Source of the DNA: Cephalotus follicularis
Lineage: Eukaryota; Streptophyta; Magnoliopsida; Oxalidales; Cephalotaceae
Assembly (NCBI GenBank): GCA_001972305.1
Contig: BDDD01001629.1
Span: 180,040-244,039 of the forward strand
Direction: 5' to 3'
Length of the DNA stretch: 64,000 nucleotides
Position numbers and translations under genes: made by a program. Positions 1,377 to 63,524 of the stretch are shown one piece after another (positions within the stretch are counted from its first letter, which is position 1; every line of letters begins with the position of its first letter). A model generated the notes under the pieces. That model did not search any database. It saw only the letters and a list, made by a program, of their open reading frames with translations, and was not told the DNA's origin.

Positions 1377-1582
1377 GTCGACGGTTCCAGGTAAAGAGTC
1401 GACGCTTTGGAGGCATCGGACGACACTCTAATTATAAACATCGACGTGTTGAACTCAAGTGTGTCAGTTGACTGAAAGCGGCAAAACTTTGTAAGAAAGC
1501 GTCAGCGCTTTAGTCAAGATAGAAGTTGGAGAACTCGGGAGAAGCCCGTGAACGGCGACGCTTAGGTAGAAAGTGTCTACGC
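1377..1582 (+). repeat. 21-bp phased GTCGACGC-type motif array in LTR H
   Basis: Degenerate copies of GTCGACGC start at 1377, 1398, 1419 (GACGACAC), 1440 (ATCGACGT), 1554 and 1575. The first four are exactly 21 bp apart, and so are the last two. The intervening bases do not repeat. The array lies about 220-430 bp upstream of a TATA-like box at 1804, so it would sit in U3. Confidence 0.65.
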
Positions 1583-1802
1583 TCGGAGCTACAGACAAAT
1601 TGCAAAATCTGACTTTTTGGCATTTTGTGAGTAAAAATCTTTAATTTTGGACACGTGGCAGGCCCGGGATGAATGATTTGAGATGTTATCAGATGATCTA
1701 ACAAGTGTCATCACTTGGATTGGCTGATTTTGAACACATGGGCTGCTATGAGAGGGAGTTGAGTTATGCGAGAGAGGGAGAAGACTTGCCTCCCAAGTAA
1801 CC

Positions 1803-1930
1803 ATTCTATTTAATGGCAATGAGGGTTGAATTCAGTCATTTTGGCTGAGAAGGAAAGTGCTCCTGCTGAGAGTGAAGTGACGAATTCGTGGGAGAGCAAA
1901 AGAGAAAGAATTTTTAAAGCAAAGTAAGGA
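1803..1930 (+). promoter_or_regulatory. Candidate promoter, leader and 5' splice site of LTR H
   Basis: CTATTTAATGG at about 1805 is TATA-like. It is followed by a purine-rich stretch (1835-1920) and then GCAAA|GTAAGG, a good 5' splice-site match with GT at 1924. These are sequence matches only; a transcription start is not demonstrated. Confidence 0.4.
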
Positions 1931-2570
1931 AATTCTATACCCATTTTCTACAAAGTATCCCCTGTTTTACTTCAAATTTTACAACATATGGTTTTATTGA
2001 TATCTTGCTCAATTCTTGATGAATTTTTAAATGGTTGAATGTTCTGGAAACGTTAGGATGTCCTTTTTAACTGTTATGCTTTGCACGTTTCAAGATTCTA
2101 TCGATTTCTTGATGAAAATCCATGTTTTAAATTGCTATTTGGGTACTGTTTTATTCCTGAATTATGCAGCAACTTCTTTAAATCACATCTTTCTCGTTTC
2201 TTGATGAAAAATTAAATGGTTGGAAGTTTTGAAAACCCTAAGATGTCCTCTTTAACTGTTATGTTTTATATATCTCAAAATTCTGTTGAATTCTTGATGA
2301 GAATCAATGTTTAATTTTACTGCTCATACCCTGTTTTCATATGGAACTAGCCACTTTCAAAAATTCACAACATATTCAATTCTCAACCAATTGTTATGAT
2401 CTTGATTTTTCTAAATTCGTAAAGATGTATACTTTAATGTTTATTGTAATATCCCGTTCCTATGCTTACATGTTTTATGTTGGGTTTATGTCTTTTGACA
2501 TATGCTATGGTTTGTGAACGCTTTGATTTTTGGTTTGAATTGCTTTCATTTTGTTTTCTGGGCACAAACC

Positions 2571-2698
2571 GTCGACGCTCTTATAAGAACCGCCGATGCT
2601 TTGGCCGCTGTGTGGCACGTCGACGCCTAAACGTGTGACTTCGACGCATATTGTGTTTAAGTGTTTAACGGTCGACGCTTTAAGTAAACAGTCGACGC
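2571..2698 (+). repeat. GTCGACGC array 1 in element A 5' LTR
   Basis: GTCGACGC or one-to-two-base variants start at 2571, 2592, 2619, 2640, 2671 and 2691, with spacings 21, 27, 21, 31 and 20. The 6-bp centre GTCGAC is palindromic. The array falls inside the 890-bp segment missing from the 3' LTR. It lies upstream of the leader/donor-like site at 2971. Confidence 0.75.
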
Positions 2699-2965
2699 TT
2701 TAATCGGCTGTCCATATCAGTTTGGACGGTGGGCTGTTTAGGGAAAGAGAAGTTTTGCCATTTTTGTTAATCCGATTTTTCCTTGTTTGTTGAAGTCGAA
2801 TCTGCAAGAAAGGAAAACTCATTACATGCATGATTTACCATTAATTTTTACTCGTTTTTGCTGATTTTAAAAGACTAAGAATTAATTTGAAAGAAAACTA
2901 TCTGCACTTTTTACAAACCCGAACAACAATTTTGAACACATTTTCTGCATCGATTTCGACGTTTT

Positions 2966-2978
2966 CTGAAGGTAATTT
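2966..2978 (+). promoter_or_regulatory. Candidate 5' splice site in element A LTR
   Basis: CTGAAG|GTAATT has its GT at 2972 and resembles a plant donor. A matching acceptor abuts the gag ATG at 5178. Use of the pair is inferred, not shown. Confidence 0.35.
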
Positions 2979-3464
2979 CTAAACAAAAGTTGTAGATTGT
3001 ACTATGTAGTTTCTGTATCATCCTTTTATTTGTATTAAAACCGACTATAAATTGATTTAGAGCATGATTATAGAAGCCTGTTGAAACTAAATTTCTGCTG
3101 TATGTTCATTCATGGGTTTCATGCATAACTTGTAATGTTGATCCTTAAAGACAAAGAAATCATGCTATTGACGTATGTAGATATATATATATATGTCACG
3201 GATTGTAGGATTTATACATAAAAATTCGGATTATAGTGCATGATTTACAAACTGTTCTAAACCAGAATTTTTGATTCAAGATTTTCATACCTTTGTTTTA
3301 CTTTTGATCATGCACTAAGATAGTATATACTGGCGTTTTTGAATTAATATAACATGTAACTGAACCTAAATGCTGTTAATTATGCATTGTGTTTATCAAA
3401 AATCGGATTTGTTCATGAGATTGAAACTATTTTCTGCATTGGTATTCTGTGTCTGACGCAAACC

Positions 3465-3591
3465 GTCGATGCTAAGTGTTTGAGCGTCGCCGCTTTGTAC
3501 CGTTTTGTGCTTTGGTCAGTCGACTCTTTACTCGACGCTTTGTCCTTTTATGCGATGAAACCGTCGATGCCTAAGAACAAACTGTCGACGC
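3465..3591 (+). repeat. GTCGACGC array 2 in element A 5' LTR
   Basis: Motif copies start at 3465 (GTCGATGC), 3486 (GTCGCCGC), 3519, 3531, 3563 and 3584, with spacings 21, 33, 12, 32 and 21. This array is retained in the 3' LTR at 9935-10061. Some copies differ between the two LTRs by C/T at the CG inside the core, as expected from deamination of methylated cytosine. Confidence 0.75.
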
Positions 3592-5014
3592 TTTATGGGA
3601 GTTTTAATGTTTCATCCTTTTTTATGTTATGTGATGTTTTGCCTCATATGTTTAGGTATTGATATCATCAGTGGTGGAGTTTAGGATACTTCTAGGGTGC
3701 TTTTGTTCGATATTCTAGTTGTTTAGATTTTTGACCTGCTAAGGTACGGATTTTCTGTTCTTTGGCTATCTGATTGGAACTGTTCCGTTTCACCTTTATG
3801 ATTAAAGTATAGATTTTCGTTCCTTGATAAACTCTTACTGATTCAGTTCTGTTTTGAGAATAAATACAAATTCTTTGTTTTGGTTATTATTTGGTTTTAT
3901 GAATATGTTCCCTTTTGGTTTATGAACTCCGTTATATTTGGATTTTGAAAATAAAGTCACTTGATTTTTTATGAGGTAAATATTTCTGACTTTATGAATT
4001 CAGTTATGATGTGTCTACGAAATGTTATGCAATCATCTCTTTATTGTGAAATTAAATCAGTTGATTTTTTCGATTATGAAAGCATGTGTTTATATCGTTT
4101 GAGAACGATTTATGTTTATGTTTGGGAAATCTTTCTACGTATTTTAAATTGATTTGATGAAATCAAGTTTTTGAAATGGTGAAATACTGAGCTTTTTATA
4201 ACCACCTATGGGGGTACCATAGGCATGCTGTGGGCCTGGCACGGGGGCATGACACTTTCCGTAACGGTGAGATTTGTTCACGGCGTCTCTCTGGGATATC
4301 CTTGGATAGGATTTGTAATAGAGGCTTATGGATCGATCCTAGTTATACGTTTGGGATATGTTTTGGGATATGGGAATTGTATGTGTAGTGTCGTATACTG
4401 CAATTCCATTTGGCAATGTGGGTGTCGCGAACCCCTTGCTATTATGTGATTCTGATATGTTATGGGTTTTGGTTCTCAGTTATGGATCCGATGTTTTGGA
4501 AAGGTATACTTTATGGTTTCAAGTTATGAACTTGTTTTACATGTTTTGCCGTGGGCATTTATAAAGTATGTTTAAATTATTTTATTGCCTAAGATTTCTG
4601 ATTTAAAGTACTTTTGAAATCTTTTTGCTTTAAAATATCGGGTACTGTTTTATATTCTATATCCGTACTGAGGTTTGCTCAGCCGTGTTTTTGTTTCCAT
4701 GCGGCAGGTTATCAGGAGCAAAGGGGCAATGTGTGATGAGAGTGACTCCCATATGTCTGAGGATCGTCTTGTAGCTGATCCATTTATGTATATGTGGTCA
4801 TAGTAGAACCATTTAATAAACATATGTTAATTTGATTTATGACTTTTGGATTTTGAATAAGTTTCAGTTTATGATCAGTTTCAGTATGTTTTTTATTATG
4901 ATTTAAACCATCACGTTTTTAATAAAGATGAACGTTTTTAATATGATATGATATGTTAAGTTTCTGTTATATGCACCTGTGGCGACTCCCACAGCTCGGG
5001 GGTGTTACAGTTTA

Positions 5015-15918: not shown

Positions 15919-16071
15919 TGTAACGCCCAGGACTTTCGTTGAATGTAATGTTGTATTTCCTGATGTAACCAATTCTTTGAATTAATGAGAATCATGACTT
16001 TTCCCACTTGGTAATGTTAAGACATGAACGAAAAGTTAAAGGAATGTTGTAATGGGTTGGAGCAGGGAGGC

Positions 16072-16176
16072 AATCGACTGGACACCCTTATGTGGAACCA
16101 GCCGACTGCTGGGAGAAACAGTCGGCTGGATCTATTGGCAGAGACAGTCGACTGCCGAGGTGAGACAGTCTACTGC
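16072..16176 (+). repeat. AGTCGACTGG-type array 1 in element B 5' LTR
   Basis: Copies of AGYCGACTG start at 16072, 16100, 16120, 16146 and 16167, with spacings 28, 20, 26 and 21. CAGTCGACTG, the best form, is a perfect 10-bp palindrome. The array lies before the GA-rich leader. Confidence 0.75.
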
Positions 16177-16249
16177 CATGCGGTCAGACAGCATAACGTG
16201 CACGCCAGACCTGTCATGGCAGAGAGGGAAGTGATAGATGGTTATGTCG

Positions 16250-16558
16250 GCAGAGAGAGAGAGAGAGAGAGAGAAAAGGGGGAAACACGTTTTTCCCATA
16301 GAAACACACTCTCTTCCCTTCTCCAATAAGCATTTCAAAGAGAGAAAGAAACAAAGAGTTGTGAGGGAGAAGGAGAGGAAAAGAGAAATAAAGGTGAAGC
16401 CAAATGCTCCGTACTTGAACCGAGGGCTTGGAGGCTCGAACCAGTGGAAGAATCGAGCTTGGTGAAGTTGTTGGACGGACCTGGGAGCTCTGAACGCCTC
16501 AGATCCAGGACTTAAAGTGGTGGATTGCAATTAACAACATGGGATTCGAGGTAAGGGC
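16250..16558 (+). promoter_or_regulatory. Leader-like segment with candidate 5' splice site, element B
   Basis: A GA microsatellite and purine-rich tract are followed by a less biased stretch ending TTCGAG|GTAAGG, with GT at 16551. The same context, TGGAATTC-AGGTAGGGGA, recurs in the B 3' LTR (GT at 23490) and both C LTRs (GT at 28412 and 44572). Conservation between families suggests function. The transcription start is not visible. Confidence 0.4.
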
Positions 16559-16732
16559 TTCTATAATTGTGGTTTACGTTCTGTTATAATGGATGTTCAT
16601 AGATGAAATGCATGCAATAGACTGTGATATGAGCATGAATGTGCGTTGCTATTGATGAATGCTCTGTTGTGAATGGATTGGGTTCAGAATTGCATGTATT
16701 TTTTGCTATTTTCGTACACTGCTCGCAGGAGT

Positions 16733-17110
16733 AGCCGACTGTCCCAGGAGGAAGTCGACTGTTTGAGGGTATCAGCCGACTGTTCAGCTAGAACAGCCGA
16801 TTACTCGATGGGAAATAGCCGATTGTGCAAGTGAGCCAATCTACTGTTCATGCATTTTAATGGAGGACACCTCCTGCTGTTTGTGCAGCTGACAGTAGAT
16901 GGCACAACCGACTGTTTGGGGCGATAGTCGATTGTCCATGTGTCGCTCTGCCCTGTTTTGCTGAGGTGGCGAGGCTGGGGAGGGTAGCGATGTAGAAGAT
17001 GAGTACTGTTCATGAAGCAGCTGACTGTCAAAAGGAGACACCCGACTGTTAAGGGGGCAGCCGTCTGTTGAAGGTAAACAGTTGATTGTCAAGAGGAGAC
17101 AGCCGACTGT
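16733..17110 (+). repeat. AGCCGACTGT array 2 in element B 5' LTR
   Basis: About 14 copies are present. The first run starts at 16733, 16753, 16774, 16795, 16817 and 16834. After a gap, further copies lie at about 16906, 16926, 17019, 17040, 17060, 17080 and 17101. The usual spacing is 20-22 bp, and the core is conserved while spacers differ. A few copies are decayed, such as AGCCGATTGT and AGTTGATTGT. Confidence 0.8.
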
Positions 17111-17754
17111 TTGGAACTGACCTACACTTTGAGCATATGTTTTCATTGCATGTTGATATGAAATGAACTGAAGATTGGAATATGAAAGATCTCTAAAGTG
17201 TTTTATTCATTTTAGAAATGTGTACATGATTTTATACAAATCATTATTTTATGCGAAAATGTATATTTTGATAAATGTATGTTTTCGATGGATTGAAACG
17301 TGATTTCAAAGACTGATTACGTTTGAATAAATGTAATATTTCCAGTATTATAAAACTTATAAATTAGTTGGAAATGATTTGATTTCGGATTGATTGATTG
17401 ATTGTGAATGATGCTGTACTAGCCCGGGTGACGGAGTGTCGTCGATGGCTGGTGAGGGGATGTTCACCTAGGGGCCAGGAGATGGCTAGGGACGCCCAAA
17501 TACAATGTTACTAGACACATAGTGCCAGTAACACGGGTTACCATGATTGTTGAACATAGAGTGCGAGCATCATGAGTTTGATTTGCCTTGCTTGGTGATC
17601 TGAGAGTCTAGTGTCAAAGTAAGAGTACGACGTCGAGGCTAGGAGATGGCGGAGCTCTTCGTACAGTTGATTCAATTTTATTTGATTTGTCCTTGGAGAC
17701 ATGATTGATGATTTGGTGGTTGTAACCACTTGGCATGGTTGCACCTATTGGCAT

Positions 17755-17845
17755 AGATACATATATGTATACATATATATGTATTGCGATATACTATGTA
17801 TTACATCATGGATGCATTCATTTCATGACATTCATTATGATTGAC
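17755..17845 (+). promoter_or_regulatory. TA-rich segment conserved between B and C LTRs
   Basis: An alternating TA/CA stretch is followed by a phrase containing TACTATGTATTACATCATGG and ATGCATTCATTTCATGACA. It recurs at 24735-24825 (B 3' LTR) and 46115-46210 (C 3' LTR) and is missing at the assembly gap in the C 5' LTR. It could be a promoter or a polyadenylation region; the sequence does not decide. Confidence 0.4.
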
Positions 17846-18282
17846 CCTGAGTTACACTTATAATTTACACGAGTGAGGACAAAGGCTAACCCTCTACTAT
17901 TTTTATATTGATGCAGTGATATGGACATCGCCCGAGCACGGTCTAATCGGAGGGGAGATGGAGTTTTATTTACCCGAATAAATGATAAACAATGTTTTGA
18001 GACATGTTTTTATTTTGGATTACTGTGTTAATGTATAAATGATGTTGATCGACTTTTGATCACGCTTCGTTTGAGGCAATTGACAATGGCTTGATGATGT
18101 TAAATGTTGGAATCATGTGGTATGGGACGCATGATCATGTTTATTTATTCGGCTTGTTATTAAATGCTTCCGCAAGATGTTATTGGAACCAAAGTTTTAA
18201 ATGTATCGTATTTTTGTATAAGCTAGATTTATGTTAATTTTCCTTCATATATGTTTTTAATGGGAACGGGGTGTGACAACAG

Positions 18283-23246: not shown

Positions 23247-23671
23247 CGGTCAGACAGCATAACGTGCACGCCAGACCTGTCATGCCAGAGAGGGAAGTGA
23301 TGAGGGAGAAGGAGAGGAAAAGAGGGAGATAGGTGAAGCCAAATGTTCCGTACTTGAACCGTGGGCTTGGAGGCTCGAACCAATGGAAGAATCGATCTTG
23401 GTGGAGTTGTTGGACAGTCCTGGGAGCTCTGAAAGCCTCGGATCCGGGACTTAAAGAGGTGGATTGCAATTCCTATCTTGGAATTCGAGGTAGGGGATTT
23501 TACAATTGTGGTTTACGTTCAGTTCTAATGGATGTTCATAGATGAAATGCATGCAATAGCCTGTGATATGAGCATGAATGTGTGTTGCTATTGATGAATG
23601 CTCTGTTGTGAATGGATTGGGTTAAGAATTACATGTATTTTCTGCTGTTTTCGTACACTGCTCGCAGGAGC

Positions 23672-24092
23672 AGCCGACTGTCCCAGGAGGGCAGTCAACT
23701 GTCCAAGGGTATCAGGCGACTGTTCAATGAGAACAACCGACTACTCAATGGGAAACAGCCGACTGTGCAAGGGAACCAGTCGACTGTTCATGCGTTTTAA
23801 TGGAGGACACCTCATGATGTTTGTGCGGCCGACTGTCGAGAGAGGGCAGCCGACAGTAGATGGCACAACCGACTATTTTGGGTGACAATCGACTATCCAC
23901 GTGTCGCTCTGTCCGGTTTTGCTAAGGTGGCAAGGCTGGGGAGGGTTGCGATGTAGAAGATGTGTACCATTCACGAAGCAGTCGACCGTCAAAAGGGGCT
24001 AGCCAACTGTTAAGGGGGCAGCCGACTGCCAAAATAGGACAGCCGACTGTTGAAGGTAAACAGCCGACTGTCAAGAGTAGACAGCCGACTGT
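23672..24092 (+). repeat. AGCCGACTGT array 2 in element B 3' LTR
   Basis: The first run starts at 23672, 23693, 23714, 23735, 23757 and 23778 (21, 21, 21, 22, 21). The last run starts at 24001, 24020, 24041, 24062 and 24083 (19, 21, 21, 21). Additional copies lie near 23827, 23847, 23866 and 23887. The 10-11 bp core is kept while the roughly 10-bp spacers differ from copy to copy. Confidence 0.85.
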
Positions 24093-27259: not shown

Positions 27260-28766
27260 TGTAACGCCCATAAATTTCATAAATGTTTATTATGAAATTG
27301 GTGCGTGTACGATCGTAAATAAAACGGATAGAGGCCCGGAGTAATAAAAAGGCATTACGCATTGAAGCCGTAATTACGTTGCCAAAAACGGTAAATAAAG
27401 CCTATTTTTAATGCGCGACAGTAAGGCCCTGTGTTCGCAATATTATTGCGATTATTTTGGTGGTCGTTTCGATAATTTATATCGTGGTTTGCTGAATAAT
27501 TAGGACCCAGACCTTCGTATTTTACCAGAAAATACTAAAGAGGAAGCAAACGTTATAAGGGAGGGAGAGAGAGACACTAGCGCATCACACACCAATGGAA
27601 GAAAGAAGGCATCGGGCGGTTTGTGCTCCCATGCCAAAGAGACAATGAGAGAGAGTAGGAGAGAACGCGGGAGAGAGAAGGATAGAGGACGCCGGAGTCG
27701 GCCACCGGACCGGGAGAGCATGGCGGTCAGCCCAAGACCTCCAATCAACGGTAACCTCTTCTTCCCTTTCTATTTTCTCTTCTTTTTCTTCTTCTCCCCG
27801 TCACTGTGCGAGCCTCTGGCGGGCTTTTTCCGACGCCGTTAGCGTTGCGAATGGAGGGGGTTTTCATCTAGAATGCCCGCTCTATCCATTTCGACCGGAA
27901 TCACTTGGCCGAGTCGACACTACGAGTCGAGTCACTGCCACCTGAGACACGGCGTTTGGAGCCAAGTCTCGGCGAGTTTCGGGCAGTGACGCGTAGGACT
28001 GTTGATTTTGTGGCGGTTTTGGGTGGCGGCCGAAGTAGTGGAGGTCGGGCGAGTCGACTCAGTGATTTACAACTCGCTGTCGACGGTGACACGGCAGTCG
28101 GCGCTGATTCACGGCGAGTCTTGAACAGTTCTGTGTTGACCGTTCAATGTGGAACCCGTTTATGGGTGTTTCACATGCTGGATGAGTTGGCCGGAATCCA
28201 TCCGGCGTTTCGGTGAGGCAATGTTTTATCTGTCGAGCATAACAGAAATGTGTTGTATGTGCAGTGTGTGAGTGGCAATTGGATTTGGCAGTGACGAAGT
28301 GATCAATCGACAAGAACCGGCTTCAGTTCAACGGTTATTGGAAAGGTTCGGCAATTGAACCTGCGGCTCGACGTTGATGTTGCGGCTGTGATTCCTAACT
28401 TGGAATTCCAGGTAGGGGAAGCCATACATGAAAGTTTGAGTTCAATCATGTTGTAATGTCATTGATGAAATGCATGGATTTTGGATTGTGAATTGTGTGA
28501 TTTGTGTTAGGGTTGCTATGAGTAGTTAACCTGCCATGCATATCATGTTTTAGAGTGGTTGTGGATTGCATTGCATACATGTTTTGGGATGATTTTCCCA
28601 GGGTGTGTGAATGGTGTGATTGGTGTTAGGGTTACTGTGAGCAGCTAACTTGCCTTGCATATTGTGATTGAAACGATTGTGGATCGGATTGCATGTGTGT
28701 TTATGCATGTTGATTTCTGCGTATTGAAACGTGTGGAAGAAGACGACCTTCTGGTCTTCTTTAACC

Positions 28767-29834: not shown

Positions 29835-29835
29835 N
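29835..29835. other. Single unknown base marking a collapsed TA repeat
   Basis: The only N in the window falls in a TA run. The 3' LTR has about 200 more bp at the same place (46125-46330), including a long TA tract. The assembly probably collapsed here. Confidence 0.7.
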
Positions 29836-34605: not shown

Positions 34606-34607
34606 AG

Positions 34608-34619: not shown

Positions 34620-37130
34620 GATCCGTTTAATTTCAATTGGACTTTAATTTCGGTTTTGGTGGCTATTTTGGAATAATTAAAGTACCTGAAATTCTGGTTT
34701 AATTCCCTTCCCATGGTTGTTTTATAAAATAAAATATTATTTTTTGGGAAACTAGGTTTTAAATAATCTAGTGGGAGGTTTACTGGAATGTCAGTGGACT
34801 TGTGGAATTATTTTGATTGACCATCGGAAATTGAAATTGCTTGTTTTTATTTAAAGTCTATAGTGGATGTAGATTTTAAATGTCTTATGCATGATAGTAG
34901 GCTATGGGACTGGACCTAGCTTTTTAATTTCTTTTGTGGATGGTTTAATTTGCTTTGTTAACTTGTGCTTTTATTTGGTCTGTAATTTGGTTGCCTGCGA
35001 GCACCATTGATTCCTTTTTTGTATTATTCTCTCTCTCCTTCCAATTTGAATTCTGTTCTTTATTTTTTTTAAATGTATTTTGAGAAATTTCTTTTTGTAA
35101 ACAAAGAAGAAAAGAATAACAAAGGAGCTTGTAGAGGAAGATAAAGGAAGTTACAAGACCAAGTGAAGGCCATGTATGCGTGGTGCATTTTGTAATAAAG
35201 TAGTTTTAAATAGTTCACCTGGGAGATCGAGTGGTCACATTGGCATGTGTGATCACTCATAGATTTAGTCCCTGGCCACGCCATATTTATTTCTAAGTAG
35301 GAAATAGGTTGCCTGAGATGAATGTTTTCTTTTTGCAAACAAATCCAAACACGTCAAGCATGCTAAGCCGCTCAATTGGATTGGAAGATAAAATAAATCT
35401 AATTAACGACATGGTAATATATAAAATTTGATAAGACCAAATTCCTCCAAACTTGTGACATAATAAGTCCATAAGCGGTGGGACATAAGGCTGTCCCGTC
35501 GTTGGCCTTCCATAATTTTCATTGAATGGTGTGGATATATTTGGGATAGCACTGCACAAGGCAGAGGTCCTCTGTATGACCATTTCTGTCCAATTTCAGT
35601 ACTAAGGGAGTACTGGAAGGACGTAGCCATGTTTCGGTACCAACGGCACGCACACGGGCGGGTATCAAAACGAGTTCATTTCTTTGAGGATTGTGGGTTC
35701 GGACTTATACCGAGTTCATACTATTGGCACAACACACGGTTGTGGATTGTATGGGTCACGATGCCAGAACTTGTATTGGATCTTACACTGAGGGCAAGAG
35801 GTCCTAATGTAAATGGGCACACGTGTCTAACTATCTTGATATTGTGGCGGTTCATGCACACGGCTAGGGTCATGATAAAGAGAGATAGATTCCGATCCCC
35901 ACTAGGAGGCAAGAGGCTTCTCGAATTCCACATGGAGATGTGGGATACGATTAGAATAGTGGGAGGAGCCATAATTACAAAAGACCAAGGATTATGGTAA
36001 TAACATAAATGGAATGATCTGTTAATATTCTCTTTCTTTTTCCTCATATAGGTTGCTAATTTTCACATACTTGATTATATACTCAAATTGGCAAACAGCA
36101 CAAAACAATTTTCAAACACGTTTAAAACATCAAAACTTGAACATCCATATTTCCCTGAATGGAAACGCGTTTAACTCAACATTCTCACAAGCATGAGAGT
36201 CGCTCATGTTATGATTGAGATAACCCTGAGCTCGTGAACGATGTATCCGACCATCACAGGGACATAGGGGCTTTATGGTGGGACGACGATTGTCGAGCTC
36301 GTACCCTATCAATTGTTGGCATGTTGCCACAATTCCGCATGATCGGGTTATGCACTAACAGACCTAGTGTGTCATGCTTACACAACTCGGGGAGTTGTAT
36401 GGCACCCAGTCGAGGACTGTAAAGGTGGATTTTGACCAAGAGAGGTCATGATCGTCTGTGATGTCTCAATTTCCTACTTGAATAATCTCAAGGGGAGATA
36501 GATCAAGTGAATCTAAGTTTCAATGGTGAAAACCCAAGGAAGAGGCAGTTAGTGCAAAAGGGATTCCATTCTAGATAGGATCTAAAAGTTTTATATGGAT
36601 TTGGCCTACTTTCGTTGTGGGAAGCTAAGGCAATTGGAAGAGATATAATTTGTTCCCATAGTCCAAAGCAGGAAATACCTTATGGTTAGGTACTTTCATG
36701 TTTTATCTAGTTTACAATGTAAGTTCAATTTGAGTAGTTGGCTCAGATTGTGAGACTAACATTTGCAACTCTTTGCAGGTTGCTGAGCGACGCTACACAG
36801 CTGAGAGAGCTGACAAAGCTATGGACTGGCACCATGGTGATGCATCGAGGATTCACACCTATGCAGTTGGCGTTTATGAATTGTATATTTTTGTAAATGG
36901 TTATGTAATAAAGATTTGATCTCTGTATATAAAGAACATTGTATGGAATTTTGTTTCTATGTGATATATGTATAAGATGAGCTGGAAGTTCAAATTTTTG
37001 GTACTAATTCTTAGTCTTACACATTTCAATGTTCTAGTTAGTGCAAGAGGCACGTGGACAGAAGAGATCTGTGTCTTATACAATTACCATAACATTAAAT
37101 TAACAATTCAAAAGGACAAATTAATAAAAG
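34620..37130. other. Copia I internal region without recognisable gag
   Basis: About 2.5 kb where gag and protease should lie. I see no gag domain, zinc knuckle or protease motif on either strand. A GC-balanced stretch (35590-36000) has an open minus frame but no family resemblance. ACTCTTTGCAG at 36768-36778 is acceptor-like. This may be a long leader, decayed gag, or acquired sequence. Confidence 0.4.
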
Positions 37131-37136
37131 ATATAA

Positions 37137-37970
37137 ATCCTTCATTACTATTGCATTGTTGATTAGGTCATCCTAGAGATGCTAGGAAAACACAATGGTT
37201 AAGGATGATTTATGAAGACATCCAGGATGTGTGGTCCTCTCCAACGAGTGCACCATGTGTGTTTGGTGTGATGACCAAATCTCCCTTCTCTGTGCGAGGA
37301 GATAGGATGGTGGACATATTAGGTTAATTCCACAGCGACGGTAGTGAACCAATATCGGTTAATGCAAATGGAGATTTTGACTACTTCAATACCATCATCG
37401 GTGTTTTATCACGATTTTGGGTAAGCGTTTCAAGAGGAAAACAAGTCTAAAATCCTAAGAAAGAGTCATGGATTTATGACTAGAAGTAGATAATGGTAAG
37501 GTCCATTATGTCTTTTATACATCTTCCAAAATCTTTTTCTGGGTAATGCACTATAGTTGGCAGAGTATATCCTAATCTGAATTCCTTTGAAATTCGTTCC
37601 CTCCGATAGTCAAGAGGATATCATATTATCATGGAGATCATAAATGGAGGAAACCCAGCCTAAACCATTTGAGGGTTAAGGCTGTCCAGTTTATATAAGA
37701 AGGCGAAAACCTTCTCAGCTGGAGGCACGATTGAAACGTTGCCGGTTTGTGGAATATTCTAAGATGAGCTTAGGATATTACTTCTACCATCCCTGCGAAC
37801 AAATATGATTTTGTTTCGCGTACTGCAAAATGAGAAGGAGCACCTGATTGCAGGAAGCAGTGGGAGTTAGGTGAAACAAAGAAAGTTTGTACCAGGTAGA
37901 AACCCACAGGATGATAAGGAACTGGAGGTTTAATCCTCTAAAGACATTATTGGGAAAGGATCCCAATCTG
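37137..37970 (+). pseudogene. pol: Copia I integrase remnant
   Basis: The pre-integrase zinc finger reads LHC*LGHP near 37151, where relatives have HCRLGHP; the stop TGA (37160-37162) is probably from CGA. It continues with MTKSPFSVRGDRMVDILG and ANGDFDYFNTIIG, matching the copia integrase start. Later pieces match the conserved end of copia integrase: HLRVKAVQF near 37665 and MSLGYYFYHPCE near 37763. The core between them, with its catalytic residues, is too decayed to trace. Frame changes and stops are frequent. Confidence 0.75.
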
Positions 37971-38239
37971 AGAAAGAGTCTATGTAAGGCTCTCCTCTAG
38001 CGAGGAGATCAGGCAAAGGTTTTCAACAACGCCTGAGAAATAAGGTTTTCTCATTAAGACACTGACGAACCTAACATCTGCGAGATGATGAGCCTGTCAA
38101 CTACAAGGAAGTAGTGAAGAGCACTAATTTCAGGACATGATAAGAGATCATGAAATCCGAAAAGGACTCCATATACTCCTACCAAGTGAGGGACTTGGTA
38201 TACGCACCCGAAGGCTTAAAATCCTATCAGATGCAAGTA

Positions 38240-39092
38240 AATCTTCAAGAGGACAATTGTCGTTAATGGTAAAGGTTGAAACTTTTAAAGTGCAATTGGT
38301 CATGAAAGGATATACACTAAGACACGAGGTCTATATACTAAGAACTTTCTGACCAGTTCCAATGCTTTAATCCATTCGGATTATGCTTGTTGTTGCCGCT
38401 CATTGTGATAATGAGCTATGACAAATGGATGTCAAGACAGTCTGCAAGAGTGACTATCTTGAAGAGGACATCTTTACGTCCCAAACCCAAGAGGTTTACA
38501 TCCGAGGAGCATTCGCACAAGAGGTGCAAAAACTCCAAAGGTCTACGACCTTAAGCAAGCATCCCGTATCTAAAATACCCATTTTGACTTCGTCGAATAT
38601 ATGGATAAGCCTAATGTCTACCGGAAATAGGATAACCCAGAAATCACATTCTTGACTCTATATGTAGAAGACATACTACACGTAGAGAATGATATAGGTA
38701 TGTTGAAATACAATTAAGCAAGACCTTCTCCACAAAGGATTTGGGAGAGGCTTTCTACATTTTAGAGAATGAAGATCTAAACAGTATATCGAGCATATTG
38801 CTTGGACTTTCGCAAAGCCAGTACATCAGCAGAGTGCTGAAATGGTATGGAACGAATTCCATATATGGCTCACTGCCAATTAGCCAAGGAATTCACCATT
38901 CCAAGATGATGTCTTTTAAGACTTATAAGGAGGGGACACGCATGTATAGACAACCTTATGCTTCAACAATAGGCTCCATCATGTATGCCATACTTTGTAC
39001 TGAGCCTGATGTCAATATGCCTAAGGGTTTGGCTAGTCGATTTCAGTCCAGTCCCTGTAAGAGACATATGGACATAGTCAAGAGGATATAAT
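38240..39092 (+). pseudogene. pol: Copia I reverse transcriptase remnant
   Basis: Scattered frames spell copia RT in order: LVMKGYTLRH, MLXSIRIMLVVAAHCD, QMDVKTVCKSDYLEEDIFTSQ, VQKLQRS, then LYVEDILHVENDIGML, which carries the YVDD-box equivalent with Glu at the first Asp (YVED, near 38660-38675). GEAFYILENEDLNS, LLGLSQSQYISRVLK, PYASTIGSIMYAILCTEPDVN and SRFQSSPCKRHMDIVKRI follow. Several frameshifts and stops separate these pieces. The altered YVDD box would abolish activity even if the frame were intact. Confidence 0.8.
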
Positions 39093-39660
39093 GCCTGTGA
39101 AAGAGTCAGGATTATTTCTTGACTCATGGAGAATATAGTAAATTGAGACGTAAGAGTTGGGTTAACTCTAGTTTCAATTGTGATCCGGATGATCACAAAT
39201 TCTTTTCAGGATATGTGTTGATCCTGAATGGAAGTGCTGTGTGAGTGGGAGTAGTTTGTGGTAGTCGAGGATTGCAGACTTCACCAGAGAATAAAAGTAT
39301 GTGCAATCTGTGATACCGGTTATGGTAGCTGGTTTGGTAGCAGATGTTCATTGTGGAACTTATTAGGTTCCTTCCATCATTGTCCAGTTGTGCAGCATAG
39401 GGACGACGATGGGGCTTTGCACAAACCTTGGAACCCGGGTCTCATTACCGCCCAAACATATACAGCAACGGTATCATTTCATTGTGGAGATCATAGATGA
39501 ATATAACGTCGTAAGAGAGATGTTATTGAGGAAATATAGGAGACATCACGAGAGTAGATGTCACCATAGAGAGAGTCGCTTGAGAAGCGAACTTAACAGA
39601 CCCACTGACCAAGGCCATGAGAAGTGCTAGAGTGCGATATGCTTAGGCTGGAGGTCTTCA
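39093..39660 (+). pseudogene. pol: Copia I RNase H remnant
   Basis: Fragments match copia RNase H: DYFLTHGEYSKLR, a WVNSSFNCDPDDHKFFSGYV segment, GLCTNLGTRVSLPPKHIQQR and a degraded DPLTKA near 39600. The order and the distance to the polypurine tract are as expected. Stops and frame changes are numerous. Confidence 0.7.
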
Positions 39661-39670
39661 TGGCTGGAGG

Positions 39671-39684
39671 GAAAAGTGGGAGAT
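39671..39684 (+). other. Copia I polypurine tract
   Basis: GAAAAGTGGGAGAT abuts the 3' LTR start TGTTAG, the usual copia arrangement. Confidence 0.85.
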
Positions 39685-42414
39685 TGTTAGATTACGGTGT
39701 CCCTGCAAGCCACGAGAAGGCTGCAGACATATATTGTTAACATATGACACACTCTTCAATCGTAAATTCTTAGTTCCATTCATGTTCTAGTTGTGCATTT
39801 TCAGTAAAGATTGGCATTTTGCTATATGTATTATCCCATACCGTCTCTACGGATCAGTTGATCACCATGTCAACTGATACACATATAGCGCCCTGTCCGT
39901 AAAGGGTTGGATCTCGTGCCTGAGAGGTTATGAGAATGAGATTCTTACTCCCTTGTGATAAAAGTTACAAGTCATAGGTTCACTCTCTTAGGGAAATTGA
40001 TGAACCGCAAAGACTTTTCGTGTTATGCTTGCTCCGAATGGTAAAGGAGGATGGATCATCTCATTGCCATTTGGGTTTTACCCTAAAGCTGATGCGGGGT
40101 GCGTGCAAAGGCACGACACTTAACCGACCCACCATAGGTTATCTATTTGGAGAGTCAATACCTCTGTCAATAGAGTTCCTATTGTCGCGGTAGTGATTAG
40201 CCAAAGAGGGCTAGTAGATCATACGTGATTTACGTTGTATCATTGGACCTGAGCGTCTGGTATACGTTGTTTAGTAACTGCTTGGCTTTCATTTCGGCCT
40301 TCCCCAGCACTAGCCACGTGCTGGCAAAAGGGTTGTCTTTGGGCCTTGCGGGAGCTGCATTGAGATGTGTGGGCGAGTGCGCAAGATGGGATCGTCACAC
40401 CCGTGTTGAGGGTTATAGGCTCTATAACATCTGTGACTGTTGAAGACTTAAAGTCCTGCCCAGGCACTGGGAGATTGGGAATGAGAGGTTTCCGGGGATA
40501 TCTCCCATAGTCTTAGTGCGTTCATAGAATTATAGTTATCGCGGTTTTACCTAGGGGTGGCATTTATCCAAACCCTAGTCCGCGGTCGGAGTCGACATGA
40601 CGAATGATACGCGACAAGCAAACCGATGACAATGATAAAGTTCTGGGGAACCGGTTAAAGAATGATAGACGTGGGGTTTTTGGTCCGCGGATTCGGGGGT
40701 GATTATAGATCACACCGGGACTATTAGCTGGATAGTCCTACCAAAACTTAGGGATGTTCTGAGAAATTTATCATCATATCAGAATTCCACCGGGCTTTCG
40801 GGTCCTGCCTGATTATTGGAAAAGTGACGCATGCTGCCCACATGCTCGCTGGTGGTAAATCTAGTTTTTAAACTAGTATATATTATTTTGACATTAGTGA
40901 TTTGTTTTTCATTCCACTAATTGTCATCTTGATATATAAGAGATTTGAAGCCAGAGCATGATTTAATTTTAATTAAATTAATTAAACAGAGGGTCTTTAA
41001 TTATTTAAAGTGAGAGACTTTAATTAAATCACTAAAGAGAGAAACATGTTTAATTAATTGAGAGAATTATTAAACATGTATGAGAAACAAAATTAAAATT
41101 GAAAGAGATTTTAATTAAAGGAGAAAGGAGAAACAAAATTAAAATTGAAAGAGATTTTAATTAAAAGGAGAAAGGAGAAACAAAATTAAAATTGAAAGAG
41201 ATTTTAATTAAAGTAGAAAAGAGAAATAAGAGAGAGAGACTTAATTTTAATTAAGTCAAAACTTTCTTTTTAAGTCAAAAATGATTTTTTAAAAATCTCT
41301 CTCTTAATCTCTCTCACACTCTCTCCCATCTCTCCCTTTTCTTCATCTTATAACGCACGACTCGTGCGTTTTGGGCAGACCAGAGATGCACATGGTGTCT
41401 GGCGTGCAGGGGCACGTTCTGGCTGGAGGAGAGACCGGCGCTTCACGCCGGAGGCCGTGAGAAGGCGAGCGACCATCCCTAGTAAGCCTTCTCCCTTCTG
41501 TCTCCCATTTTTTCGCTTCTTCTCCTCCATTTATCCCTCTCGGCCGTTTGCATTTTTTGGCCGTTTCTTGCTCCCGGCGTCCCTTCCACCGCTGTTGATC
41601 ACAGTGGGTGGAGCCAATCCATGGCTCTATCCATTTTGATATTTGTTTTGCATTCCCCGGTCATTTTCTAGCCGTTTTGCGTTTGGTGAGTCATCTTGCG
41701 AGTTGAAGCGTCGGCCTGTGGTGACTTGGCCTTCCGCGTCGAGTCACGGCGAGTCTTGGGTTGGGGTGTGTCGGGTTGGTGTCGCTGAGCCGTTTGGTGG
41801 CTTGGCGGCCGCTGATGACGAACAACGAGTCAACCCCGTGACTCGCCGTCGGCCATTCTCTGCCTTCCAGGCCGAGTCTCAGGCACCGGTGTGTTCTTCG
41901 TGCTGTTAGCGCCACATTTGTCAAGACCAGTCAATGGCGAGTTGAAGGAGACCCACTAAGTCCGAACTAAATGAGTCGCCGCCTCTGGCTGCCGTTTTCC
42001 GGCTCGGTTCCAGGCATGTCTCCTCCAGATTCAGGTTGAGTAGATTTTTTGGAGTCCGTTTGTTTCAACATCGGACAAAATGTGGACTGTCTGAATACCG
42101 GCGGTGTTACCGGTGTTCGACTTTTGCTACTTCAAGCGTGTAGCGGCAAAGTGGTGGAGCCTCCAATGTTGGTATGATTGCTTCACTCTTACTTTTATTG
42201 ATACCGATGTGTGTTCGGTTTATCTTTATGTGCATGCTTGTTCTTTTTTTTAGTTCGCTCGTTAATTAAACAGAGATCCTAGGCTTTTCTACTTGCTACT
42301 AAGATGTAAGTGTGGACCATGACTTTCAGTCTTGTTGTTTTTGAAAAATTAAAATTATACACACTTGCGTCCTAGGACCAAATCGACCGGGAACCCCTTA
42401 CCAAGTTTCCAATA
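39685..42414 (+). repeat. Copia I 3' LTR (2730 bp)
   Basis: It pairs with 31921-34605 throughout. It ends CCAATA where the 5' copy ends CCAACA, a single change in the terminal CA. TSD CCGGC follows. It contains an extra unit of the GAAAGAGATTTTAATTAAAG repeat around 41100-41220 compared with the 5' copy. Confidence 0.92.
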
Positions 42415-48476: not shown

Positions 48477-48479
48477 AGT

Positions 48480-53583: not shown

Positions 53584-53586
53584 AGT

Positions 53587-57605: not shown

Positions 57606-58905
57606 TGTAACACCTCGCGCCCGCAGGGCGGACACGTGGCATTACTCTCAATCCAATATGCAATACAATGGTCGAGACTAGCAATATAAAAATGCGGAAA
57701 ACTTTAAAACTTTGCAACACATATCATCTGCGGAAGATACAATACACTGATCCATACATATGGTGCAATACAATACAAATCCTTTACAATACAAGTCTTT
57801 TACAATACATCATCAATCTTTCAATACAATATTACAAAGCAATACATTTCCATCCTTCACCACAATATCAATGCATGACATGGCAAATGTACATGTACAA
57901 TTGGCGATCAGACTACCCATATGACAGTGGCCCATAACAGAGCATACGGATAGGATCTATAACAAACAATCAATCAATGGCAGACACTCAATGGTGGTGT
58001 ATGAAACACCCAATCAATCAATCAATATCCTATAGAGCATGCGACCGGGTCAATACAATGTCAATCGGTTACCGGTGATCAATCCCACGGAAGGTAGTCC
58101 TTCAAAAAGGGTGGGAGATCTATCTACGGTTCTCAGATTGATCAGGTCTGGGACTCATAGATCTTCCAGCCTATGACTGGGTCAATGCAGTCTCGATGAG
58201 CTACAACCGAGAGAGCTATTGATACCGTTAGGGAGCCACGGCCTCAAGGGAGCATCAATCGACAATCAATCGGTACCGCTCGTCAGCGGGTCAATACAAT
58301 ACAATAAATGAAACGATCAGCGAAATAGGTGGACAGAGTCAATGACCTAACATGCCGACACTAATCATAAGGTCGCTCTATAGGATCCATACAATACAAT
58401 CAATCAATAAATCGAGTCAATACAATATTGGGCAAAGTCAATAAGTGGTGGTGTCTAATGGAGAAATGGGAACGTGCATCCATCGTACCGACTTAGGCTC
58501 GCAACAACACTCACGACTCAACCAATCGATCAATGTATCAATACAACGTCGAAGCAAGGCCAATAAGTGGTGGTGCCTAATGGAGGGATGGGAACGTGCA
58601 TCCATTTTACCGACTTAGACTCACAACAACACCTATGACCCAAACAATCAATCGGTAGCCGCTAGGCGGTGACAATCAAATCGACGAAATAGGAATGAAC
58701 ATCTATTTGGTCAATGAGAGTCACTGAGTCGTCACCTATGGCCCAAGCTGTCACTCTATCATTCTATCAATTCGATCTTTGAAAACCATTAAAAACTGTG
58801 TTTTAAACGCTTGAATACCTCAAGTGAGGTTCCGGTCAAGCGGCAATGGGAAAAGGGTTGAAAAACCAGCTTTAACAGTTAAAAATTCCACTCTGCCCGA
58901 AAGGC

Positions 58906-59210
58906 GTCGATGTCTTTAACAAAAGACGTTGATGCGTATCAAGGCATGCTTTTGAAAACGGTTGAAAGACGTCGATGTCTTTCTCAATTTGGCCGAAGAC
59001 GTCGATGTCCTTGGACAAAGATGTCGACGCGTTTCAATGAAAATTGCTTGGGAATGCGCATCGATGTCTCGCGTCGACGCCTTCTCTGAGGAAAGGCATC
59101 TCAAGCAAAAGACGTCGACGCCTAAAGACGTCGATGTCTTTGCTGCGAAAACAAGGAGGCTGCATCCCAAAGTGAAAGACATCGATACCTAGAGGCAAAG
59201 GGATCGACGT
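58906..59210 (-). repeat. GTCGATGTC-type array in element F LTR
   Basis: Plus-strand copies of GTCGAYGYC start at 58906, 58928, 58971, 59001, 59023, 59060, 59073, 59114, 59130, 59181 and 59203. Spacings of 21-22 and 41-43 are common, with some irregular ones. AGACGTCGAYGTCTTT is the full form and is a near-perfect palindrome. The array lies downstream of the TATA box, within the transcribed side. Confidence 0.75.
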
Positions 59211-59512
59211 CTTTGTTGGGAATGGCCGATTTTTTTCTGCAAAAAACCAGCAAATTTCAAGCCAAAATCCAATCAAATCCATTCTTTAAGAAACCAAGGG
59301 TTAAAAATCGTTCTTTAAGGTTAGTAAAACTAGTTACAACCTTCAATTTAACATTTCAATATTTCTATTAACAATTAGGTCAAGGATTTACTAAAAAAAC
59401 CTAAAAACCCTAATTTCACTCAATACACTCAATTCAATCATTCAATCAGTCATTGAATCATGCAATTCAATCAATCAATCAATAAAGCAGTAGGTAATTC
59501 AGTAAAGAAGTC

Positions 59513-59771
59513 CTACCTATCACTGAAGCTTCAAAAGTTTAGCTAACGATCGATCAATCGGCCTAAATCGCCCAAAAATCGGCTACTTTCTTGTTCAATC
59601 GGCAAGCCACCACTTGTAATCACTGTCCTTGTCGATGGAGACGCAATTCCGGCTGCAAGGGATGAAGATGGAGGCTCCAGCTAGAGAGAGAGAGAGAGAG
59701 GGAGAAGGATAGAGAGAGAGAGAGAAAAGAGTGAAGAATGAAGAGATAAGAGTGAGAAATTGACTTATATA
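59513..59771 (-). promoter_or_regulatory. Promoter, leader and 5' splice site of element F
   Basis: On the minus strand GACTATATAAGTC (TATA box at plus 59764-59771) is followed by a CT microsatellite leader (plus 59740-59680). About 250 bp downstream lies GATAG|GTAGGA, with GT at plus 59516-59515. This is the clearest promoter in the window and fixes the motif array as downstream of transcription start. Confidence 0.6.
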
Positions 59772-59940
59772 GTCAATTCGACCAACTCTCCGAAACTCAG
59801 CCCAGAATCCCGACTATACATGCATAGGATCAATACAATATCAATAGGTATAAGAATACCTCAATTCAATACGGTTTAGTACGGTCCAATACGGTACAAT
59901 GTATGCATAAACAGTACAAAAGGGAATTCGGGTCGTCACA

Positions 59941-61831: not shown

Positions 61832-61855
61832 AACTAAGAACTCATAATGGCCATA

Positions 61856-62086
61856 TCACGATCTGAAAGCCGTCTTCGGAACATCCTCCGGCCTGACTTT
61901 CAACTGGTGGTAGCTCGATCTCAAGTCGAGCTTAGAAAACACTGTTGCTCCCATAAGCTGGTCGAACAGCTCGTCAATGTGCAGTAGAGGGTACTTATTC
62001 TTCACTGTAACTTTATTGAGCTGTCGGTAGTCAATACACATACAGAGCGATCCATCTTTCTTTTTGACAAAAAGAACAAGTGCTCC
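61856..62086 (-). pseudogene. pol: Element F reverse transcriptase N-terminal part
   Basis: This reads [53 protein letters not shown] and TAFRS followed by TGA at 61858-61856. Relatives have Arg there, so CGA to TGA is likely. The frame then continues as YGHYEFLV into the downstream entry. At 62086 it is interrupted by LTR G; the GALV at the edge is the family's [10 protein letters not shown]. Confidence 0.9.
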
Positions 62087-62248
62087 TGTAACGCCCGGAA
62101 ATTTCATGTATTATGATTTCACAATGTAAATGTACTTCATTTGTGGAAATTAATAAAATGATGGTTTTTCCGAATTTGATGATGTTGATGTTGATATTAA
62201 GTCAATTATAAACTTAGAAGTGTGATTACTTGATAACTATAGGGAGGC

Positions 62249-62399
62249 AGTCGACTGGCACAACAGACCAGCCGACTGGCTGACTGCGAGTGGAAGCAGT
62301 CGACTGGTGGGATGAACCAGTCGACTGGCCAACTGTCGTGACACTTGGCAATAGACTGCCAGGCGAACAGCCGACTGCCAGGGAAAGGAAGCCGACTGG
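62249..62399 (+). repeat. AGTCGACTGG array in LTR G
   Basis: Copies start at 62249, 62270, 62298, 62319, 62369 and 62390. Pairs are 21 bp apart, with jumps of 28 and 50. CAGTCGACTG is a perfect palindrome. The array precedes the leader. Confidence 0.85.
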
Positions 62400-62635
62400 A
62401 TCGTGCTCTGTTTTAATTGCATGTGATGAGATCACATGCAGCCACTGATAAGGCATCTTGCAGGCGCCATCTGATGATAGATGAAACGTGTATGCCATGC
62501 ACATGACTGCTAGAACCTGCAAAAACTTAGGGGAAGGGGTGGATTGACATGTGTGTGTGCATGCAAGTGTTAGAAGGGAATGTGGCATTTAGTGCCATGT
62601 GAGGGAGCTAAGGGAGGAAGAAGAGAAAAGTCTCT

Positions 62636-62797
62636 GCATAAAACGCCTCTCCTCACTTCTCTCGTCCAGACACTGAAAGACCAAAGAACCAGAGAAATTG
62701 AGAGAGAAATAGTGAGAAATTGAGAAGGGAAATAGTGAGAAATTGAGAGGATTCTCCATTGGACCGGGGTTGCAGTACGTGAGAATGAGGTAGGGGC
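62636..62797 (+). promoter_or_regulatory. Leader-like segment and 5' splice site of LTR G
   Basis: A weak TATA-like GCATAAAAC (62635-62643) is followed by a purine-rich AGAGAAATAGTGAGAAATTG repeat. Then comes AATGAG|GTAGGGG, with GT at 62790. The arrays lie on both sides of this segment. Confidence 0.4.
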
Positions 62798-63308
62798 AAA
62801 CGCTTGCCAAACCTCGTTCAGGAGGCATACAACGAATCGTGCCGCCGATTTGGTTGTCGTTCAATGATCGTGTCGCCGACTCATTAGTTGTCCGTGTTCG
62901 TAACGTGTCATGTTCAGTTCGTTATTTATATTAATGAACTAGTTTATATAAACAAATTTTATATAATGAGGCAAGTGTTCAACACTATTCAATATTTTGA
63001 ATTTTGTTATGTAAACTAACACATTGGTTAGGAAATTTTGTAAAGAGGCAGAAATCCCTATGAAGGGGTCAGTAAAGCTTTTATATATTTTAGTATACAA
63101 CTGTTTATATGTAAAAGCATGTTATTACTAATATTATTAGTACGTTCGAAAAGTTTTACCATTTGTGAAAAATCTTTAGTTGGTATTACGTTAAGTGTCA
63201 TGTCATCGTCAAGTTTACGTCCCGTTTGTATACGAGTCTTACGTGGATCCCAACAACCATTAATTGGATCCGGATAGTGAAAGAGATTCCCAAGTTAAAG
63301 ACATCATT

Positions 63309-63524
63309 GTCAGCTGACAAAAAGGTATTGTCGGCCGACCTAGGAACTCAGTCAGCTGACAAGGAAGGGTTGTCAGCCGAACAAGTAGTGCTCGTAAGCC
63401 GTCAGCTGACGGAAGGAAGCTGTCAGCTGACAAGACCCATTTTTGCGTACACGTCAGCTGACAAGAATGTACTGTCAGCTGACCTACAAGCTCATCAGCT
63501 GACAAAATGAATTTGTCAGCCGAC
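63309..63524 (+). repeat. GTCAGCTGAC array in LTR G
   Basis: Copies start at 63309, 63330, 63351, 63372, 63401, 63422, 63453, 63474, 63494 and 63515. Spacings are 21, 21, 21, 29, 21, 31, 21, 20 and 21. The consensus TTGTCAGCTGACAA is palindromic over up to 14 bp, and spacers differ between copies. It lies about 520 bp after the donor-like site. Confidence 0.9.

What the first reader, a model, noticed from the sequence alone, without database searches (positions are those of the whole stretch)
1377..63524. Unrelated LTR families all carry palindromic-core motif arrays phased at 21 bp
In LTRs H, A, B, C, F and G, an 8-11 bp core recurs at 21 bp, with occasional steps near 30 bp. Examples are 28965/28986/29007/29028/29049, 24020/24041/24062/24083 and 63309/63330/63351/63372. 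Cores are conserved and spacers are not. The core differs by family (GTCGACGC, AGCCGACTGT, GTCGATGTC, GTCAGCTGAC), but the geometry is the same. 21 bp is two turns of B-DNA and about 31 bp is three turns, which suits protein sites on one face of the helix. Conserved cores with free spacers argue for selection on binding sites rather than a decaying tandem repeat. Repeated elements in plant LTR promoters are known (for example Tnt1 and ONSEN). I cannot place this phased, family-variable design among them.
Basis: partly seen in the sequence, partly recalled or inferred. Interest (0 to 1): 0.88.

Follow-up and report, generated by a model that had tools for sequence, protein, structure and literature searches.

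The report
21-bp-spaced palindrome arrays in plant retrotransposons
Several related families of plant jumping genes carry rows of short, nearly palindromic DNA words set almost exactly 21 letters apart, and the same rows recur throughout the host genome, which looks like a docking lattice for a DNA-binding protein that controls these elements.

Summary
In the window 43 of 70 core-to-core steps are 20-22 bp (random placement 7.4), and a motif-free 6-mer autocorrelation over nine LTRs peaks at 21 (117 pairs; shuffles 6.6±3.4). In the 1.58-Gb source genome CAGYCGRCTG pairs occur 88,790 times at 21 bp and 123 times at 25 bp; GTCGACGC and GTCRGCYGAC pairs also recur at 21 bp. Genome matches were not shown to lie in LTRs. 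Spacers are near random. Cores decay fastest between the two LTRs of element C, yet diverge least between families C and D, which fits selection on binding sites.

Corrections: the families are related gypsy elements. Cores are often imperfect palindromes, mostly in one orientation. The second preferred step is 28 bp, so strict same-face phasing is not shown. The arrays of F and distal G probably lie downstream of transcription start. F's periodicity is weak.

Best reading: a multi-site platform for a dimeric, probably host, protein regulating LTR transcription. It works like, but is not shown to be, a VANC-target or Tnt1-type array. The binder is unknown.

The parts
1212..2444 (+). LTR H, first part; the rest is 11485-12404, split by insertion of element A (scripts used 1211 as its first base)
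   Evidence: TGTAATGGCCC start, GGTGTTACA end at 12396-12404, TSD TTTAT around A
1375..1582 (+). Array H, type I cores (GTCGACGC-like), steps 21,21,21,61,53,21
2445..5009 (+). 5' LTR of element A (gypsy; 3' LTR 9804-11479)
   Evidence: gag, protease, RT, integrase parts and a sub-cut-off chromodomain match by Pfam
2569..2698 (+). Array A-proximal, type I, steps 21,27,21,31,20; about 125 bp into the LTR
3463..3591 (+). Array A-distal, type I (copy in the 3' LTR at 9933-10061, where the loss of about 890 bp brings it to about 130 bp from the LTR start)
15919..18278 (+). 5' LTR of element C (3' LTR 22965-25262)
16071..16175 (+). Array C-proximal, type II CAGYCGRCTG (3' LTR copy 23117-23241)
16732..17109 (+). 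Array C-distal, type II, 14 cores
23671..24091 (+). Array C-distal in the 3' LTR, 16 cores, with 24019/24040/24061/24082
27260..30195 (+). 5' LTR of element D (3' LTR 43391-46655); a copia-like element is nested inside D
28765..28849 (+). Array D type I (3' LTR copy 44925-45028, steps 21,52,21)
28964..29163 (+). Array D type II, steps 21,21,21,21,64,21,21 (3' LTR copy 45233-45437)
57606..59940 (-). LTR F of a minus-strand gypsy element with RT at 60320-61855 (scripts used 59941 as its last base)
58904..59212 (-). Array F, type III AAAGACGTCGATGTCTTT-like, commonest step 22 bp, weak periodicity
62087..64000 (+). LTR G (runs off the window)
62248..62398 (+). Array G-proximal, type II, steps 21,28,21,31,19,21
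63309..63524 (+). Array G-distal, type IV GTCAGCTGAC, mode 21 bp
31921..42412 (+). Nested copia-like element, LTRs 31921-34603 and 39685-42412: no array found (used as a control)

Best explanation
The arrays are multi-site binding platforms in the LTRs of a set of related plant gypsy (chromovirus-like) families. Each 10-16 bp core (GTCGAC-centred types I-III, and type IV GTCAGCTGAC) would be one site for a dimeric sequence-specific DNA-binding protein. A 20-22 bp step would set the geometry at which neighbouring dimers touch or cooperate. The protein, most likely host-coded, would control transcription of the element from the LTR. Units are gained and lost one repeat at a time by slippage or unequal exchange between like cores, which lets core type and number change quickly between families while the step is kept. 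Shown: the arrays, the spacing, its genome-wide recurrence, nearly free spacers, unit-sized indels, and the contrast of core decay and core conservation. Inferred: protein binding, dimer state, cooperativity, direction of the effect and identity of the protein.
For: Spacing is sharp in the window and in the genome (88,790 matches at 21 bp, against 123 at 25 bp). Several core types share it: type I 22,336 matches over both strands, type IV 246. In a motif-free 6-mer scan of 200 kb of contig C1, AGTCGA, GTCGAC and CGTCGA lead the excess at 20-22 bp. Spacers are near random in 29 unique units. Cores decay most between the two LTRs of C and diverge least between C and D. Gaps inside the C and D arrays include 20, 21, 21 and 22 bp. 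In the window no array of cores was found outside the LTRs named, though single core matches occur. The proximal arrays of A, C, G and H start about 125-165 bp into their LTRs.
Against: No binding data, and the binder is unidentified. The second preferred step, 28 bp, does not keep the helical face. Types I and II show an orientation bias (17:4 and 16:3) that a symmetric dimer would not need and that fits descent by tandem copying. Core against spacer between families taken alone gives p from 0.0014 to 0.24 over seven tests, only two of them below 0.05, and cores were chosen by their match to a consensus. The D LTR pair does not show the fast core decay against spacers (17 of 90 against 26 of 98), and the A pair has too few changes (4 of 50). 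Genome matches were not tied to LTRs (an LTR-start motif lay near 5 of 12 clusters).
Confidence: 0.6

Rival explanations
1. Neutral minisatellite: an ancestral 21-bp tandem repeat in a common ancestor of these LTRs expands and contracts by slippage. The cores look conserved only because they are recent copies or recombination hot spots.
For: Unit-sized gaps, orientation bias, weak purine-rich spacer consensus in C and D, related families. Plain 21-bp tandem repeats exist, for example in L040 and in phage contig L014, both with conserved spacers.
Against: Spacers within arrays are near random while cores are not. Cores mutate faster than their surroundings after insertion in C yet differ less between C and D. 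Several different cores share the same step.
Confidence: 0.14
2. The arrays are bound by a host silencing factor, or act as methylation nodes (cores are packed with CG and CHG sites), so they mark the element for repression. The element keeps them for another reason, or they hitchhike.
For: Cores hold 12.1% CG and 13.9% CHG sites against 3.2% and 2.8% in the rest of the LTRs. Core changes between the C LTRs are mostly transitions (24 of 30 with cores defined in the 3' LTR), as decay of methylated C would give; methylation itself was not measured.
Against: A sequence that only helps silencing should be lost from successful families, yet it recurs in tens of thousands of copies.
Confidence: 0.1
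3. RNA-level role: self-complementary cores in the transcript form hairpins or help two genomic RNAs pair.
For: Palindromes are self-complementary: G2 and G1 fold about 4 and 3 standard deviations better than Markov resamplings (-90.5 against -60.3±7.3; -68.4 against -49.2±5.8). The arrays of F and distal G appear to be transcribed (inference).
Against: Folding is no better than with cores kept and spacers shuffled (five arrays, z from -1.0 to +1.3), and C3b, D5b and A5a fold within one standard deviation of resampled sequence. The commonest type II core has two C-A mismatches when self-paired. RNA would not require a fixed 21-bp step.
Confidence: 0.07
4. VANC-like system: a transposon-coded anti-silencing protein binds the arrays.
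For: Dense, same-orientation short motifs in non-coding parts that evolve by repeat gain and loss, as described for VANDAL targets (PMC5735166, 12 passages seen).
Against: Element A has gag and pol filling its 4.8-kb interior. In 18 of the 19 stop-to-stop frames of 130 aa or more in the window, Pfam found only gag, protease, RT, RNase H, integrase and chromo parts, or nothing (the frame left out is a near copy of one tested). Shorter frames and other family members were not examined.
Confidence: 0.06

Closest known systems
VANC21/VANC6 target arrays of Arabidopsis VANDAL transposons (PMC5735166; start of abstract and 12 passages)
   Same: Short motif, many copies, same orientation, non-coding parts; motif differs between families; arrays change by repeat gain and loss
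   Different: The passages describe a motif YAGTATTAY, not palindromic, bound by the transposons' own VANC; 'spacing' and 'palindrom' have 0 occurrences in the main text. Here LTR elements, quasi-palindromic CG-rich cores, a fixed 21-bp step and no accessory gene seen
Regulatory boxes in plant LTRs: Tnt1 BII boxes (PMC3316501, 4 passages), ONSEN heat elements (PMC3907296, 10 passages); U3 variability in review PMC10794571 (12 passages)
   Same: LTR-borne sites for host regulators; U3 motifs differ between species and subfamilies of element
   Different: [quoted passage not shown] these cores are rich in both. Here a fixed 21-bp step, and some arrays probably downstream of the start
SV40 21-bp repeats and plasmid iterons (recalled, no call)
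   Same: Sites repeated at about two helical turns and bound cooperatively
   Different: Different kinds of element and function; analogy only

Membership tests
VANC target array (VANDAL) | Many copies of a short motif in one orientation in non-coding parts | tested here: met
   Orientation 16:3 and 17:4 in LTRs, a bias, not uniform; no array found outside the LTRs in the window
VANC target array (VANDAL) | Arrays change by tandem repeat gain and loss | tested here: met
   Gaps of 20, 21, 21 and 22 bp in the C and D arrays; also 1, 1, 1, 28 and 103 bp
VANC target array (VANDAL) | Element or relative codes a VANC protein that binds the motif | tested here: not met
   18 of 19 frames of 130 aa or more match only gag-pol-chromo families or nothing; shorter frames and trans-acting members not excluded
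Plant LTR U3 enhancer array (Tnt1/Tto1/ONSEN type; definition partly recalled) | Repeated motifs in the LTR upstream of TATA | tested here: inconclusive
   Proximal arrays of C, G and H lie before a putative leader; for A no clear box was seen; the arrays of F and distal G lie after one; no transcript data
Plant LTR U3 enhancer array (Tnt1/Tto1/ONSEN type; definition partly recalled) | Bound by host transcription factors | not testable with these tools
   No motif library or binding data
Plain minisatellite | Whole unit, spacer included, conserved between copies | tested here: not met
   Spacer identity 0.27-0.41 against core 0.67-0.89 within window arrays; C1 sample; cores were chosen by match
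Helically phased site array | All preferred steps are whole helical turns | tested here: not met
   21 bp fits; 28 bp, the second mode of the GTCGAC-centred type II core, does not; window non-21 steps p about 0.2-0.3; 31 bp not counted genome-wide

The most novel reading that the evidence does not exclude
A large share of this genome's gypsy LTRs carry one shared regulatory lattice: CG- and CHG-packed quasi-palindromes at a two-turn step, read by a single fast-evolving dimeric factor (or factor family) that tolerates or prefers methylated DNA. Many families would then be transcribed from methylated heterochromatin through a methylation-tolerant enhancer, the opposite of ONSEN's CG-free promoter, and would swap array modules of different core type.
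Probability: 0.13. Interest if true: 0.88.

Novelty: new variant of a known kind. Interest (0 to 1): 0.67.

Why it matters
Tens of thousands of matches to one spacing rule, with the core word changing between families, give a natural experiment on how retrotransposons and a DNA-binding protein might co-evolve. The cores and step are specific enough (88,790 matches at 21 bp against 123 at 25 bp) to be used as bait for the binder. They would also allow such arrays to be looked for and dated in other plants without LTR alignments.

Tried and rejected
Viral contigs: a three-core type II pattern had 0 hits. Two-core patterns gave 9 contigs (type II), 6 (type IV) and 0 (type I). One, L014, is a plain 21-bp tandem repeat in a phage contig with conserved spacers; the other 14 were only counted for cores, where four of them (L011, L012, L013, L015) hold three type IV cores at 21 bp; these were not examined. 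Pol against viral contigs found no relative. Gag search: 3 hits, best 42% to a Rutidosis protein. Pol search: of 120 hits listed out of 7956, most named ones are Tanacetum and other Asteraceae, with some Cucumis, Solanum and others, so an asterid host is likely but unnamed.

Text search for five core words returned 194 papers, 40 listed; judged from titles and abstract starts, none of the 40 is about plant LTR elements. Searches on tandem repeats, anti-silencing, palindromes, U3, Tekay, helical turn and Tnt1 (others returned no paper) listed no paper whose title or abstract start describes a fixed-step palindrome array in plant LTRs; most subscription papers are not held, so this is weak evidence of novelty.

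RNA structure as the reason for the array was put low. Host factor candidates (DREB RCCGAC, WRKY, ARF, KNOX, NAC/VOZ, bZIP) are recalled resemblances; no matrix library is at hand. RCCGAC occurs 35 times forward and 12 reverse in the LTRs examined, mostly in C, D and G. The tool's read-backwards control for type II (246) turned out to be the type IV pattern, so it is not a null; the 25-bp spacing is the better control. An LTR-start search near arrays in the C1 sample was inconclusive (5 of 12 clusters). Only 20 stretches of 10 kb, all from contig C1, were sampled motif-free; there lag 28 (192) exceeded lag 21 (124), lag 50 equalled it, and 10 of 20 stretches had three or more lag-21 pairs. Shuffles are first-order Markov resamplings.
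Full report
What is there. The window is plant DNA dense in LTR elements. Gypsy-type elements were placed by LTR ends, repeats and Pfam: H (a split LTR), A (LTRs 2445-5009 and 9804-11479; gag, protease, RT, RNase H and integrase parts, and a chromodomain match at E=4e-5, just below its curated cut-off), C (15919-18278 and 22965-25262), D (27260-30195 and 43391-46655), F (minus strand, LTR 57606-59940) and G (starts at 62087, runs off the window). A copia-like element is nested in D. The host is probably an asterid: of the 120 pol relatives listed, most named ones are Asteraceae.

The cores. Type I GTCGACGC (H, A, D), type II CAGYCGRCTG (C, D, G), type III around AAAGACGTCGATGTCTTT (F) and type IV GTCAGCTGAC (G). 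Types I-III share a GTCGAC-like centre, and D and F share the exact 14-mer GTCGACGCCTAAAG. One LTR can carry two types: D has I then II, G has II then IV. The palindrome is often imperfect: in 64 type II cores, positions 4 and 7 are C,A in 38, T,A in 19 and T,G in 3, so asymmetric cores point mostly one way.

The spacing. Ten arrays, one LTR per element, give 70 steps: 34 of exactly 21, 43 of 20-22, against 7.4 expected. A motif-free count of identical 6-mers over nine LTRs peaks at lag 21 with 117 pairs, resamplings 6.6±3.4; the copia LTRs, interiors and other control stretches, slightly more sequence, give 21. With one LTR per family the peak stays at 21 (88), followed by 42 (48) and 31 (41). 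F is the weakest: 3 of 10 steps are 20-22. Over all pairs of cores the strongest period is near 10.2 bp, but this is driven by the 21-bp steps; the 23 other steps give no significant phase.

Genome scale. The source genome (1.577 Gb) has 88,790 matches to two type II cores at 21 bp, 154,299 with a gap of 1-30 and 123 at 25 bp. Of the first 100 listed places, steps are 21 (58), 20 (26), 28 (6), 22 (5), 19 (2), 40 (2) and 27 (1). Type I pairs at 21 bp: 11,087 + 11,249 matches, against 28 + 31 for the reversed pattern; where the core is a full palindrome a place is counted on both strands. Type IV: 246. For the short core AGTCGAC the forward counts are 72,439 at 21 bp and 11,659 at 28 bp; by eye many of the listed 28-bp spacers fall into a few recurring classes, which the listed 21-bp spacers do less. 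In 20 stretches of 10 kb from contig C1, 38 of 49 consecutive type II steps up to 80 bp are 20-22 and 4 are 27-28; type I pairs there are commonest at 21 (9), type III at 20 (9), and type IV gave none. AGTCGA, GTCGAC and CGTCGA lead the motif-free 6-mer excess at 20-22 bp. In the motif-free 8-mer count, lag 21 (124 pairs, resamplings 2-7) is second to lag 28 (192) and equal to lag 50; part of this comes from other tandem repeats. These genome matches were not tied to LTRs: an LTR-start motif lay within 2.5 kb of 5 of 12 clusters.

Cores and spacers. Within window arrays core identity is 0.67-0.89 and spacer identity 0.27-0.41, with 0.26 expected at random; in 29 unique units from contig C1, spacer columns are 0.27-0.35. 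Cores were found by their match, so this contrast is partly built in; the spacing is not. Between the two LTRs of C, identical when inserted, cores differ at 35 of 190 sites and the rest at 169 of 2041. Between C and D, cores differ at 12 of 90 and the rest at 89 of 415 (D 5' LTR) or 107 of 444 (D 3' LTR). The change of odds ratio is significant in five comparisons that share data (p 5e-5 to 0.01), although core against spacer alone gives p from 0.0014 to 0.24 over seven tests. The A pair has too few changes (4 of 50 core sites). In the D pair cores (17 of 90) differ less than spacers (26 of 98) but more than the rest (243 of 2686), and that alignment is disturbed by unit indels. Cores are rich in CG (12.1% against 3.2%) and CHG (13.9% against 2.8%), which would explain their fast decay in silent copies if they are methylated (inference).

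How arrays change. Between the C LTRs the arrays differ by gaps of 20, 21, 21, 1 and 1 bp; between the D LTRs by 22, 28, 103 and 1 bp. This fits slippage or unequal exchange between cores, and means that the step itself can be inherited. That different cores keep the same step argues for constraint but does not prove it, because the families are related.

Position. Proximal arrays start about 125-165 bp into the LTR in A, C, G and H; distal arrays start at about 707-1843 bp; D and F have no proximal array. F has TATATAAG followed by a CT-rich leader at about 171 bp, and G a TATA-like box near 550 bp, so the F array and the distal G array probably lie downstream of the start (no transcript data).

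Mechanism. I commit to a multi-site platform for a dimeric DNA-binding protein that controls LTR transcription, at 0.6. The strict one-face model is not shown, because 28 bp is a preferred step. RNA structure adds nothing beyond the cores themselves, though two of five arrays fold much better than resampled sequence because of them. Nothing VANC-like is coded in the 18 frames tested.

Known relatives. It works like VANC target arrays (PMC5735166, passages) and like Tnt1 or ONSEN LTR boxes (PMC3316501, PMC3907296, passages). Membership in either is not established.

Noticed in passing
2445-3373 and 9804-9843: The 3' LTR of A lacks about 890 bp that the 5' LTR has, including one whole array.
   Followed up: partly
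LTRs C, D, F, G, A, after the leader: By eye, donor-like G|GTA sites follow a GA- or CT-rich leader; the distal arrays may lie in a leader intron. No acceptor was sought.
   Followed up: partly
29441-29519 and 45739-45811: 30-bp TGATTG-rich tandem repeat in both D LTRs, separate from the palindrome arrays.
   Followed up: no
L040: A different 21-bp tandem repeat (CCTTCAAG units) with conserved spacers in the source genome.
   Followed up: partly
46656-57375: Repeated segments at 90-98% identity, partly in tandem, with short LTR-like pieces at 26386, 50838 and 54659.
   Followed up: no
genome, listed places: 28-bp intervals between type II cores recur with similar spacers, some holding ACGT or CACGTG, perhaps a second site (by eye).
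   Followed up: no
44919-44940: CTTTAACCGTCGACGCCTAAAG: around one type I core of D the near-palindrome extends to 22 bp, about one unit.
   Followed up: no
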